Below are positions 38,615 through 41,302 of a DNA stretch of 64,000 nt, piece by piece. Location: assembly GCF_000717055.1 (NCBI RefSeq), contig NZ_JNXI01000029.1, positions 23,951 through 87,950 of the forward strand. Direction: 5' to 3'. The position numbers were made by a program, and so were the translations under genes. The DNA is from Streptomyces iakyrus (GTDB lineage: Bacteria; Actinomycetota; Actinomycetes; Streptomycetales; Streptomycetaceae). The notes below the pieces were generated by a model. That model did no database searches, had not been told where the DNA came from, and saw only the letters and a program-made list of their open reading frames with translations. Numbering within the stretch: the stretch's first letter is position 1; every line of letters begins with the position of its first letter.

Positions 38615-39784
38615 TCAACTGCTGCGCCGGGTCACGAACTCGGCGAGGGCGAGCAGGCCGCCCGCCGCCTCCGGATCCGGCACCGCCCGGGCCAGCTGCT
38701 GCATCGCCCGTGCCATCCGGTCGGCCGCCTGGCCCTGTGCCCAGTCACGGCCGCCCGCGCGCTCCACGGTTCGGGCGAGGTCGTCGAGGTCCTCCTTCTC
38801 GCTGGTTCGCGCGTACAGTTCGGCGAGTTCGGCCGCCGCCGGTGTGCCGGAGGCGAAGGCCGCGACCACCGGCAGCGACTTCTTCCGGGCGGCCAGGTCG
38901 GCACCGGCGGGCTTGCCCGTGCGGCGCGGGTCACCCCATATGCCGATGACGTCGTCGATGAGCTGGAAGGCGAGCCCGGCCTCCCTGCCGAACGCGTCCA
39001 GCGCCGCCACCTCCTCCTCCGAGGCACCCGCGTACAGCCCGCCGATCGCGCACGCACCTCCGATCAGGGCACCCGTCTTCGCCTCCGCCATGGCGAGCAC
39101 CTCGTCGAGCGTGACCTCGCCGGGGGCACACCGCTCCATGGCCGTGTCCGCGTGCTGGCCCGCGCACAGCTCCACCACGCAGTCCGCGAGCCGGACGGCG
39201 GCGGCCGGGGACGCCGGGTGCGGGTCCTGGGCGAGCAGCCGCAGAGCCAGCGCCTGCAAGGTGTCCCCGGCGAGGATGGCGTCGGCGTCACCGAACACCG
39301 TCCATGCGGTGGGGCGGTGGCGGCGGGTGGTGTCCCGGTCCATCACGTCGTCGTGCAGCAGCGTGAAGTTGTGCACCAGCTCCACCGCGGCGGCCGCCCG
39401 AGCCGCCCCCGCCCGCGCCTCGGGCCCGCCGAGGGCCGCCGCCGCAGCGAGGACCAGCGCGGGGCGGATCGCCTTGCCCGAGCCCCCGTCCGCCGAGGTG
39501 CCGTCGACCTGTTCCCAGCCGAAGTGGTGGAGCGCGACCCGGCGCATCGGCCCGGGCAGCGAGCCGAGCGCGGTCCGCAGCACCGGGTCGACCTCCGCCC
39601 GGGCCCGCTCCAGCAGCATGACCGCCTCGTGCCCTTCGGCCGGTTCCGGCCCGCCGTCCCGCTGTGTCCCGATGCCCCCCTGCCTTTCCTTAGCCCCCGC
39701 CGAGGGCCGGGGTTCGGCGCCGCGCTGCCCACCGCGGGCGGGCAGCGTCGTCCCCCTCCTGGACCTCGTGAGGGACTCACCCAT
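38615..39784 (-). CDS. Polyprenyl diphosphate synthase, probable encapsulin cargo
   Basis: 389 aa. The first aspartate-rich motif is HDDVMDRD (residues 144-151) with RR following; the second is FQLIDDVIGIWGD. Both are intact, so a trans-isoprenyl diphosphate synthase activity is expected; product length cannot be read. About 55 extra N-terminal residues (Gly, Pro, Ser, charged) are predicted disordered, as in cargo proteins of family 2 encapsulins, where such extensions direct loading. The gene follows the encapsulin gene by 111 bases on the same strand. The start at 39784 has GAGG 12 bases upstream. Confidence 0.9.
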   Translation of the reverse strand: MGESLTRSRRGTTLPARGGQRGAEPRPSAGAKERQGGIGTQRDGGPEPAEGHEAVMLLERARAEVDPVLRTALGSLPGPMRRVALHHFGWEQVDGTSADGGSGKAIRPALVLAAAAALGGPEARAGAARAAAAVELVHNFTLLHDDVMDRDTTRRHRPTAWTVFGDADAILAGDTLQALALRLLAQDPHPASPAAAVRLADCVVELCAGQHADTAMERCAPGEVTLDEVLAMAEAKTGALIGGACAIGGLYAGASEEEVAALDAFGREAGLAFQLIDDVIGIWGDPRRTGKPAGADLAARKKSLPVVAAFASGTPAAAELAELYARTSEKEDLDDLARTVERAGGRDWAQGQAADRMARAMQQLARAVPDPEAAGGLLALAEFVTRRSS

Positions 39785-39895
39785 GGGACCGCCTCGGAGA
39801 ATGAGCGGACGGTGGCGCTTCCGCTGCCGCTGGGCTCGTACCCCGAGGATGTACCCGCCCGGACGGGCGGGGACACGGCCGGCGGGCCGGCAGCG

Positions 39896-41302
39896 TCACC
39901 GCCAGCGGCCGATCTCGACGTTCTCCAGGACGCCGAGCGCGTCCGGTACCAGGACCGCGGCCGAGTAGTAGGCCGTGACCAGGTATTTGATGATGGCTTG
40001 TTCGTTGATGCCCATGAAGCGGACCGACAGGCTCGGCTCGATCTCGTCGGGGATTCCGGAGGCACGCAGACCGATGACGCCCTGGTCGGCCTCGCCGGTA
40101 CGCAGGGCGATGATGGACGTCGTACGGGCGTCCGAGACCGGGATCTTGTTGCACGGGAAGATCGGCACACCGCGCCAGGTCGGGATGCGGTTGCCAGCCA
40201 TGTCGATGGTCTCGGGGACCAGCCCGCGCTTGTTCAGTTCGCGGCCGAACGCGGCGATGGCGCGCGGGTGGGCTAGGAGCATCTTGGTGCCGCGGCGCCT
40301 GCTGAGCAACTCGTCCAGGTCGTCCGGCCCGGGCACGCCGTCGTGCGGCTGGATCCGTTGGTCGTACTCGCAGTTGTGCAGGAGACCGAAGTCCCGGTTG
40401 TTGACGAGCTCGTGCTCCTGGCGCTCCTTCAGCGCCTCGACCGTCAGCCGGATCTGCTGCTCGGTCTGGTTCATGGGCTGGTTGTAGAGGTCGGCCACGC
40501 GCGTGTGGATGCGCAGCACGGTCTGGGCGACGCTCAGTTCGTACTCACGGGGCCGGGCCTCGTAGTCGACGAAGGTGTGCGGGATGTCCGGCTCGCCGGA
40601 GTGGCCCGAGGAGAGGTCGATCTCCTTCTCACCGTACTTGTTGGAGCGCTGCGAGGGGATGGAGCGGCGCTGCTGGAGGTGTTCGCGCAGGGTGTCCGAG
40701 CGCTCCGCGATCTGCTCGAACTCCTGGCGGGGCAGCACGAGCACGGTGCACGCGGTGAGGGCGCGGGCGGTGTACTCCCAGATCGCGTCCTCGTTGAGCA
40801 GCGCGTCGTCACCGAAGTAGGCGCCGTCGGCGAGGACGCCGAGGGACTCGTCTTCCCCGTACGGTCCCGTACCGACCTTCTCCACCCTGCCGTGCGCCAG
40901 GAGGTACACCTCGTCGGACGGGCTGCCGAACGAGGCGATGACGTCGCCCGCCGGGATCTCCCGCTGCTCGCAGCGACGGGCGATCTCGAAGAGCACCTCC
41001 TCGTCCTCGTAGGACCGCAGCGCCGGCAGCTCGCCCAGTTCGGCGGGGATGATCTCGACGCGGTCGCCGGTCTTCACGAACGTCAGCCGGCCGTCGCCCA
41101 CGGCGAACGTCAGCCGCCGGTTCACCCGGTACGTACCACCCTGGATGTCGACCCACGGCAGCATCCGCAGCAGCCAGCGGGAGCTGATCTCCTGCATCTG
41201 CGGCACGGACTTGGTCGTGGTGGCCAGGTTCCGCGCGGCCGCCGTGCCGAGACTCTGCTGCGGCTTGGTCTGCTCCGTGCGGACCTCTTCGCCTACCGAC
41301 AT
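39896..41302 (-). CDS. eshB: Family 2B encapsulin shell protein with cNMP-binding insertion (EshB/EshA type)
   Basis: 468 aa from ATG 41302 (GGGAGG upstream); a longer frame to 41377 lacks conserved sequence. The N-arm and HK97-like parts flank a cyclic-nucleotide-binding-like domain at about residues 100-215 (EIPAGDVIASFGSPSDEVYLL, AYFGDDALLNEDAIWEYTARALTACTVLVLP). The C-terminal HK97-like part includes HAR..LYNQPMNQTEQQIRL, FGLLHNCEYDQRI and RMGAN-like RFMGINEQAIIKYLVTAYYSAAVL. In the phosphate-binding cassette the canonical Arg is not in its usual place, so cAMP binding is doubtful. S. griseus EshA, a relative, affects development and ppGpp. The downstream synthase is its likely cargo. Confidence 0.93.
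   Translation of the reverse strand: MSVGEEVRTEQTKPQQSLGTAAARNLATTTKSVPQMQEISSRWLLRMLPWVDIQGGTYRVNRRLTFAVGDGRLTFVKTGDRVEIIPAELGELPALRSYEDEEVLFEIARRCEQREIPAGDVIASFGSPSDEVYLLAHGRVEKVGTGPYGEDESLGVLADGAYFGDDALLNEDAIWEYTARALTACTVLVLPRQEFEQIAERSDTLREHLQQRRSIPSQRSNKYGEKEIDLSSGHSGEPDIPHTFVDYEARPREYELSVAQTVLRIHTRVADLYNQPMNQTEQQIRLTVEALKERQEHELVNNRDFGLLHNCEYDQRIQPHDGVPGPDDLDELLSRRRGTKMLLAHPRAIAAFGRELNKRGLVPETIDMAGNRIPTWRGVPIFPCNKIPVSDARTTSIIALRTGEADQGVIGLRASGIPDEIEPSLSVRFMGINEQAIIKYLVTAYYSAAVLVPDALGVLENVEIGRWR

What the first reader, a model, noticed from the sequence alone, without database searches (positions are those of the whole stretch)
38615..41302. Family 2B encapsulin operon with a polyprenyl diphosphate synthase as probable cargo
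A two-gene operon encodes an HK97-fold shell protein with a cyclic-nucleotide-binding-like insertion (about residues 100-215) and, 111 bases downstream, an isoprenyl diphosphate synthase with intact aspartate motifs and a 55-residue low-complexity N-terminal extension. Family 2 encapsulins are known to pair with cysteine desulfurases, terpene cyclases or polyprenyl transferases, and loading uses disordered N-terminal extensions. This points to a protein nanocompartment for isoprenoid synthesis. No terpene cyclase lies beside it here, so the product must leave the shell or serve another pathway.
Basis: partly seen in the sequence, partly recalled or inferred. Interest (0 to 1): 0.9.

Follow-up and report, generated by a model that had tools for sequence, protein, structure and literature searches.

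The report
Encapsulin shell with prenyl-diphosphate synthase partner
The locus is a known type of bacterial protein nanocompartment gene paired with an isoprenoid-making enzyme; comparison with relatives suggests that the enzyme's floppy front end, thought to be its packing tag, is a late addition that many equivalent pairs do without.

Summary
Confirmed: 39896-41302(-) encodes a Family 2B encapsulin shell (NF041163, 768.5 bits) and, 111 bases downstream, 38615-39784(-) a prenyl diphosphate synthase (NF041169 'encapsulin cargo polyprenyl transferase', 468.5 bits, cut-off 450). The operon type is published (900 operons, PMC8346489) and relatives already carry the name. The pair is conserved: 78 of 80 named loci, 113 of 116 loci of a 150-genome Streptomyces sample, 12 of 12 loci examined from other genera.

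Not supported: the 51-55-residue N-terminal extension as the general loading device. It is near-neutral in the window's own clade (dN/dS 0.82, core 0.34). In 33 of 52 divergent Streptomyces loci no start codon allows more than 15 residues before the core; 11 of 12 other-genus loci have 25 or fewer. The terpene-cyclase tag GPxGxGT is in 25 of 26 cyclase loci but 0 of 196 synthase loci. The second aspartate motif is DDxxG. No experiment seen shows that this synthase is luminal cargo. Best guess: a GGPP-type synthase held by its folded body, perhaps near the shell's luminal loop.

The parts
39896..41302 (-). Family 2B encapsulin shell gene (EshB-type), 468 aa
   Evidence: NF041163 768.5 bits against cut-off 400; PDB 9bhu 658.5 bits over residues 7-467
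40700..40963 (-). cyclic-nucleotide-binding-like insertion, residues 114-201
   Evidence: PF00027 3.7e-19; Arg at residues 172-178 in only 2 of 188 synthase-paired shells, so a canonical cNMP pocket is unlikely (the role of that Arg is recalled)
39905..40657 (-). HK97-fold part, residues 216-466
   Evidence: PF19307 4.7e-137; phage major head protein phrog_212 1.3e-9
41210..41254 (-). conserved shell N-terminal motif SLGTAAARNLATTTK, residues 17-31
   Evidence: exact in 157 of 240 aligned shells, looser form in 204 of 240
40172..40216 (-). luminal loop (published diagnostic motif 2), residues 363-377 PETIDMAGNRIPTWR
   Evidence: NRIPT nearly invariant in 136 shells of groups A and B (mostly extension-bearing synthases), relaxed in 52 of group C (mostly short ones); luminal position from PMC12407261
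38615..39784 (-). prenyl (polyprenyl) diphosphate synthase gene, 389 aa
   Evidence: PF00348; NF041169 468.5 bits against cut-off 450
39632..39784 (-). N-terminal low-complexity extension, residues 1-51
   Evidence: composition; dN/dS 0.82 and no codon-position bias among 17 close orthologous loci
39656..39673 (-). IGTQRD, a recurrent short motif in the extension (residues 38-43)
   Evidence: IGTQ-like in 17 of 22 group A, 24 of 118 group B, 1 of 51 group C
39338..39352 (-). first aspartate-rich motif DDVMD, residues 145-149
   Evidence: D145 and D149 in 194 of 194
38942..38956 (-). second aspartate-rich motif, DDVIG (not DDxxD), residues 277-281
   Evidence: DDxxG in 194 of 194
39785..39895 (-). 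111-base gap between the two genes
   Evidence: read from the sequence; no terminator-like or sigma-70-type promoter-like site in 38300-41700

Best explanation
This is the EshB-type Family 2B encapsulin operon of Streptomyces: a shell protein with a cNMP-like insertion domain (shown by sequence) and a short-chain, probably GGPP-type, trans-prenyl diphosphate synthase as its dedicated partner (shown by conservation). Inferred: the shell assembles as a T=1 particle, small diphosphates pass its pores, and the enzyme works in the lumen and releases a C15-C20 diphosphate to pathways elsewhere, since no cyclase belongs to the locus. [quoted passage not shown]
For: Family models above curated cut-offs for both proteins. 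PDB shells 9bhu, 9bje and 9bix align over nearly the whole protein. Pair conserved in 78 of 80 named loci, 113 of 116 genus-sample loci (18 of these counted after allowing BLAST overlaps), 12 of 12 other-genus loci examined. Extension: upper bound of 15 residues or fewer in 33 of 52 group C loci with a shell beside them; 25 or fewer in 11 of 12 other-genus loci. Rooted with paralogues, groups A and B form one clade (support 0.884, one C locus inside) and C branches outside it; the basal ingroup node has support of only 0.441. Near-neutral evolution: substitutions by codon position 0.32/0.34/0.34 in the extension, 0.23/0.24/0.54 in the core. Cyclase tag 25 of 26 against 0 of 196. The loop window 361-375 ranks first of 288 HK97 windows for being constrained in AB but relaxed in C. 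F140 five residues before DDVMD and no insertion in that motif; the next-best NCBIfam model is GGPPsyn_IdsB, below its cut-off (359 of 475 bits).
Against: Nothing here shows assembly, loading or activity. The shell is kept without the synthase at the syntenic site in three sampled genomes (L280, L281 with a remnant, L283) and the synthase without a shell in one (L099), so neither strictly needs the other as neighbour. The loop correlation is one contrast on the tree and could be lineage drift; within AB, loci with short extensions keep the loop. The extension could still carry a clade-specific short tag (IGTQ-like, 17 of 22 close orthologous loci). Chain length rests on motif rules recalled from the literature.
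Confidence: 0.55

Rival explanations
1. One reading: the synthase is luminal cargo and its disordered N-terminal extension is the loading device.
For: Published view that Family 2B-associated synthases have disordered N-terminal domains of 50-100 residues that may mediate loading (PMC8346489, passages read). The extension is real and low-complexity here. An IGTQ-like motif recurs in 17 of 22 close orthologous loci against a shuffled mean of 1.4. The shell loop is fixed in the clade that has extensions.
Against: Extension capped at 15 residues in 33 of 52 group C loci and at 25 in 11 of 12 other-genus loci with a shell next door; near-neutral evolution; motif in only 24 of 118 group B and 1 of 51 group C loci; no cyclase-type tag in 196 loci. 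The published authors also found no conserved motif in synthases.
Confidence: 0.2
2. The synthase is not encapsulated: it is a co-transcribed metabolic partner that works in the cytosol or on the outside of the shell, and the shell holds something else or regulates flux.
For: No loading determinant could be identified in the synthase. Paralogues without a shell within their 16-kb stretch have similar short N-termini from the nearest ATG (L147, L149, L150). Shells persist without it (L280, L281, L283).
Against: Strict adjacency in 113 of 116 and 12 of 12 loci, and gene order shell-then-cargo as in the cyclase operons, favour a direct partnership. Among 13 window genes tested no other one sits on the same strand as a near-constant neighbour: the nearest constant one, the PLP-enzyme gene (108 of 112), is divergent.
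Confidence: 0.25
3. Mixed particles: EshB co-assembles with the second shell of the genome (EshA-type, L001), bringing the synthase next to the 2-MIB-type cyclase.
For: Two shells in this genome, 63% identical. Two-component mixed Family 2B shells are demonstrated for another system (PMC12407261, abstract and first part of the Discussion read). 2-MIB synthesis needs a prenyl diphosphate (recalled).
Against: The shells lie on different contigs, not in one operon. Many genomes of the sample have a single shell match. The S. venezuelae eshA operon carries a 2-methylgeranyl diphosphate synthase gene of its own (PMC6428758, passage).
Confidence: 0.08

Closest known systems
Family 2B encapsulin operons with polyprenyl transferase (PMC8346489; NCBIfam NF041163 and NF041169)
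   Same: Same shell family with cNMP-like insertion, same cargo family, almost all in Actinobacteria; both window proteins pass the models
   Different: The published generalisation of a 50-100-residue disordered N-terminal domain holds for the window but not for many orthologues in the same arrangement
EshB/SCO5249 and the neighbouring locus tag SCO5250 of S. coelicolor
   Same: eshB is named as the paralogue of eshA (PMC3878966, passage read); SCO5250 is listed with MEP/DOXP pathway genes (PMC7494193, passage read). The sigma/anti-sigma neighbours of the window fit my recollection of sigH at SCO5243
   Different: Orthology was not tested against the S. coelicolor sequence; adjacency of the tags is inferred from their numbers
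EshA plus 2-methylisoborneol synthase encapsulin (vnz_35035-35045 in PMC6428758; L001 in this genome; 9bhu is an EshA-like solved shell, its identity as EshA recalled)
   Same: Same shell family, 63% identity to the shell in L001, cargo gene directly downstream
   Different: Cargo is a terpene cyclase with a conserved GPxGxGT tag (25 of 26 loci); the synthase has none (0 of 196)
Polyprenyl synthetase structure 3nf2
   Same: Closest solved relative of the synthase (229.6 bits, residues 55-387); also DDxxG in the second motif
   Different: The alignment starts at the core; the extension matches nothing in it

Membership tests
Family 2B encapsulin shell | HK97-fold shell domain of the SrpI-like family | tested here: met
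   PF19307 455.5 bits; NF041163 768.5 bits against 400; 9bhu over residues 7-467; by sequence, not by a model
Family 2B encapsulin shell | cNMP-binding-like domain inserted in the E-loop region | tested here: met
   PF00027 at 114-201 between the N-terminal part and PF19307
Family 2B encapsulin shell | assembly into an icosahedral particle | not testable with these tools
   needs expression and electron microscopy
Family 2B encapsulin shell | operon with a Family 2 cargo gene | tested here: met
   NF041169 gene 111 bases downstream; conserved
Family 2 encapsulin cargo, polyprenyl transferase (NF041169) | score above curated cut-off | tested here: met
   468.5 against 450 bits
Family 2 encapsulin cargo, polyprenyl transferase (NF041169) | disordered N-terminal domain of 50-100 residues (published generalisation) | tested here: inconclusive
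   Met by the window's 51 residues by composition; not met by 33 of 52 group C and 11 of 12 other-genus loci.
Family 2 encapsulin cargo, polyprenyl transferase (NF041169) | physical presence inside the shell | not testable with these tools
   no experiment seen for this cargo type in the searches made
GGPP synthase | first motif DDxxD | tested here: met
   DDVMD; D145 and D149 in 194 of 194, D146 in 193
GGPP synthase | second motif DDxxD | tested here: not met
   DDxxG in 194 of 194; also DDxxG in 8 of 9 outgroup paralogues, so it is a common variant among these Streptomyces paralogues
GGPP synthase | curated equivalog cut-off | tested here: not met
   GGPPsyn_IdsB 359 of 475 bits, GGPP_syn 172 of 500

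The most novel reading that the evidence does not exclude
The synthase cargo class of Family 2B encapsulins in Streptomycetaceae is loaded without a terminal tag. The partnership is older than the disordered extension, which arose in one Streptomyces clade, varies widely in length (up to 268 residues by farthest ATG) and evolves almost neutrally in the window's branch of it. In the same clade the luminal loop GNRIPTWR of the shell became fixed. One shell family would then use two loading modes: a GPxGxGT tag for terpene cyclases and a fold-borne interface for prenyl synthases.
Probability: 0.4. Interest if true: 0.55.

Novelty: already known. Interest (0 to 1): 0.37.

Why it matters
About 900 such operons are published and the pair was found in 113 of 150 sampled Streptomyces genomes, yet how, or whether, the synthase enters the shell is open. 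Natural orthologue pairs with and without the extension make the tag hypothesis testable without design work, and the loop contrast points to where to look in the shell.

Tried and rejected
A universal loading motif in the synthase N-terminus: rejected. Synthase N-terminus carrying the cyclase tag: rejected, 0 of 196 within 120 residues upstream of the core. A tagged cargo elsewhere in this genome: one exact DNA match to a GP[TS]GLGT pattern, inside a secreted-protease-like ORF, taken as chance; the pattern allowed only CTG/CTC for Leu and so misses variants, the genome's own cyclase tag GPTGPGT included. A conserved third gene as cargo: none among 13 window genes; the steady neighbours are a PLP-enzyme gene, a Na/H exchanger and an anti-sigma/sigma pair (108, 102, 87 and 81 of 112 loci). 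Translation starting at residue 56, as some databases annotate (334-335-aa entries P0038, P0040, P0043, P0044, P0049): thought unlikely because the residues just before it (GHEA) are conserved with group C, where they must be translated from upstream. A fixed-difference list between shells of groups AB and C did not by itself single out the loop; the entropy comparison did. My first count of the aspartate motifs used a regex that missed rows; one search replaces it.

Limits: the named and unnamed locus sets overlap; six pairs of loci have identical synthase cores (190 distinct cores among 196 loci), L013 and L192 among them, so counts over both sets are not fully independent. L145 (fragment) and L146 (truncated match) were left out of the core tree and motif counts, giving 194 of 196. 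Extension statistics use the 192 loci with a shell end found (not L072, L099, L116, L145). Two more other-shell loci have weak cyclase matches (L153 71 bits, L154 62 bits) and were below my limit of 200 bits, so they are not in the 26; searched, one has a GPTGPGT and one has none. The 12 other-genus loci are 12 of the 20 other-genus loci above cut-off. The neutrality test uses 17 loci of one clade, two of them duplicates.

Full report
WHAT IS THERE. Two genes on the minus strand, 111 bases apart. The upstream gene, 39896-41302, encodes a 468-residue shell: PF00027 at 114-201 and PF19307 at 216-466, NCBIfam encap_f2b 768.5 bits against a cut-off of 400, best solved relatives 9bhu, 9bje and 9bix over almost the whole length. 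The downstream gene, 38615-39784, encodes a 389-residue synthase: PF00348, NF041169 'family 2 encapsulin nanocompartment cargo protein polyprenyl transferase' 468.5 bits against 450, best solved relative 3nf2 from residue 55 on. Of the best 30 public relatives listed (84-96% identity), 24 bear that name in NCBI; the rest have another name or none shown.

WHAT IS ALREADY IN PRINT. Andreas and Giessen 2021 (PMC8346489; passages read) count 900 Family 2B operons with polyprenyl transferases, 888 of them in Actinobacteria, describe a disordered N-terminal domain of 50-100 residues and state that no conserved targeting motif was found in these cargos. Dutcher and others 2025 (PMC12407261; abstract, section 2.1, the first of two parts of the Discussion and passages read) report mixed two-component shells, say that the insertion domain was shown elsewhere not to bind cyclic nucleotides, and suggest a luminal loop (diagnostic motif 2) as a cargo-loading candidate. 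Searches for encapsulin with polyprenyl, terpene plus 2-methylisoborneol, EshA, terpene cyclase, prenyltransferase, targeting terms, and for nanocompartment with isoprenoid listed no paper whose title or abstract start reports an experiment on a synthase-type Family 2B cargo; the library holds no bioRxiv preprints and few subscription papers.

CONSERVATION OF THE PAIR. Among 80 named loci found with the synthase, 78 have the shell directly upstream; in the other two the contig begins at or just before the synthase. In a sample of 150 Streptomyces genomes I took the 116 loci (window included) with a synthase at 63-100% identity; the next matches listed are paralogues at 45-52%. 113 have the shell directly upstream: 95 by a strict gap rule, 18 more where the BLAST match ran back over the shell end. 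L116 and L145 are contig ends and L099 has no shell in its 16 kb. With default BLAST settings 112 of the 115 fetched loci show both. In other genera 12 of 12 loci examined, out of 20 above cut-off, are adjacent. Exceptions: shells of the same clade (70% identity or more) without the synthase at the syntenic site in L280, L281 (a remnant of residues 291-389) and L283; without it elsewhere in L282 and L284; and with a distant terpene cyclase in L285 and L286. The surroundings (PLP enzyme, Na/H exchanger, anti-sigma and sigma factor) are also conserved, so this is a stable chromosomal locus rather than a mobile or pathway-specific cluster.

THE EXTENSION. I grouped the loci by identity of the synthase core (residues 52-389). 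With a shell end located, group A (87% or more) has 22 loci, B (74-87%) 118, C (under 74%) 52. Any-start-codon upper bounds for the extension are 50-89, 18-274 and 9-53 residues; 33 of 52 group C loci cannot exceed 15. In a tree rooted with nine paralogues, groups A and B form one clade (support 0.884, one C locus inside) while C branches outside it; the basal ingroup node is weak (0.441). Other genera are short too, 11 of 12 with 25 residues or fewer. So the short form is probably ancestral. In 17 ungapped group A loci the extension shows substitutions at codon positions in proportions 0.32, 0.34, 0.34 (core 0.23, 0.24, 0.54) and dN/dS 0.82 (other frames 0.92 and 0.98; core 0.34). It is probably translated, since in most group A loci the only start codon upstream of the conserved GHEA segment is ATG 1, and length differences keep the frame, but it is hardly constrained; its codon-position GC content (78, 70, 85) is also closer to the intergenic gap (84, 66, 81) than to the core (81, 54, 94). 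No short stretch beyond its first residues stands out clearly (best 7-residue windows start at 13-15 and 38). An IGTQ-like motif occurs in 17 of 22 A, 24 of 118 B and 1 of 51 C loci, against shuffled means of 1.4, 5.3 and 1.7: above chance in A and B, so a clade feature that could still matter there.

CONTROL WITH TERPENE CYCLASES. In 26 loci where the shell is accompanied by a cyclase match above 200 bits (the own-genome L001 and 25 of 40 fetched other-shell loci), GPxGxGT, the published consensus type, is found in 25 of 26; the 26th reads GPTGLGS. Two weaker cyclase matches were not counted (one with, one without the tag). In the synthases it is found in 0 of 196. The shells are alike (63% identity between the two of this genome), so two loading modes in one shell family is a fair reading.

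A POSSIBLE DOCKING SITE. In 136 shells of groups A and B the loop residues N371, R372, I373, P374 and T375 are nearly or fully fixed (132, 136, 134, 136 and 136 of 136); in 52 group C shells they vary. Mean entropy of residues 363-377 is 0.36 in AB and 0.81 in C, while other HK97 stretches differ little (0.22-0.25 against 0.24-0.30); the cNMP-like domain also varies more in C (0.67 against 0.90). Among 288 fifteen-residue HK97 windows the one at 361 ranks first, 0.58, with 0.31 for the best window away from it. This is one contrast on the tree. It fits either docking of the extension or another lineage change. Within AB, loci with short extensions (12-20 residues) keep the loop or differ by one residue, which speaks against a simple loop-extension pairing.

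ENZYME. First motif DDVMD; second DDVIG, and DDxxG in 194 of 194, so 'intact aspartate motifs' is half right; 8 of 9 paralogues share DDxxG. Phe at the fifth position before the first motif and no insertion there fit a C15-C20 product by rules that I recall, not tested. This genome has nine PF00348 matches and two of the others lie beside terpene-synthase matches (C22, and C1 with a weak 28-bit match), unlike this one.

CNMP DOMAIN. Arg at residues 172-178, where the phosphate-binding arginine of cNMP domains lies by my recollection, is present in 2 of 188 synthase-paired shells and 12 of 23 cyclase-paired ones. A cyclic-nucleotide switch is therefore unlikely here.

VERDICT. Ordinary as a system, already named in databases. 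The useful result is negative and testable: the proposed loading tag is not what the partnership rests on.

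Noticed in passing
window 40764-41268 (+): Rfam RF02735 Sernc350, an antisense RNA family from Saccharopolyspora, matches the strand opposite the shell gene (112 bits, cut-off 50). The alignment has many non-standard pairs, so coding conservation of a Family 2B shell may explain it; it suggests that the original antisense RNA lies over an encapsulin gene.
   Followed up: partly
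window 41210-41254 (-) and L001: The shell N-terminus SLGTAAARNLATTTK resembles the published terpene-cyclase tag GPTGLGTSAAR: the tag may mimic the shell's own N-arm.
   Followed up: partly
L001 (own genome, contig C8): Second Family 2B shell followed by a 2-MIB-synthase-like cyclase with GPTGPGT: one genome, two encapsulin systems.
   Followed up: partly
L280, L281, L283: Open EshB-type shell genes whose synthase gene is lost or reduced to a remnant at the same site: what the shell does there is open.
   Followed up: partly
L285, L286: EshB-like shells (73% identity) followed by a distant terpene cyclase (34-35%), with a variant N-terminal motif SLATSAARNLATTSK.
   Followed up: no
window 45271-46850 (+): Anti-sigma (RsbW-like) and SigB/F/G-type sigma factor genes, conserved neighbours of the pair; possibly the sigH locus (recalled).
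   Followed up: partly
L099: Synthase orthologue at the usual site without any shell gene nearby: a natural shell-less control.
   Followed up: no
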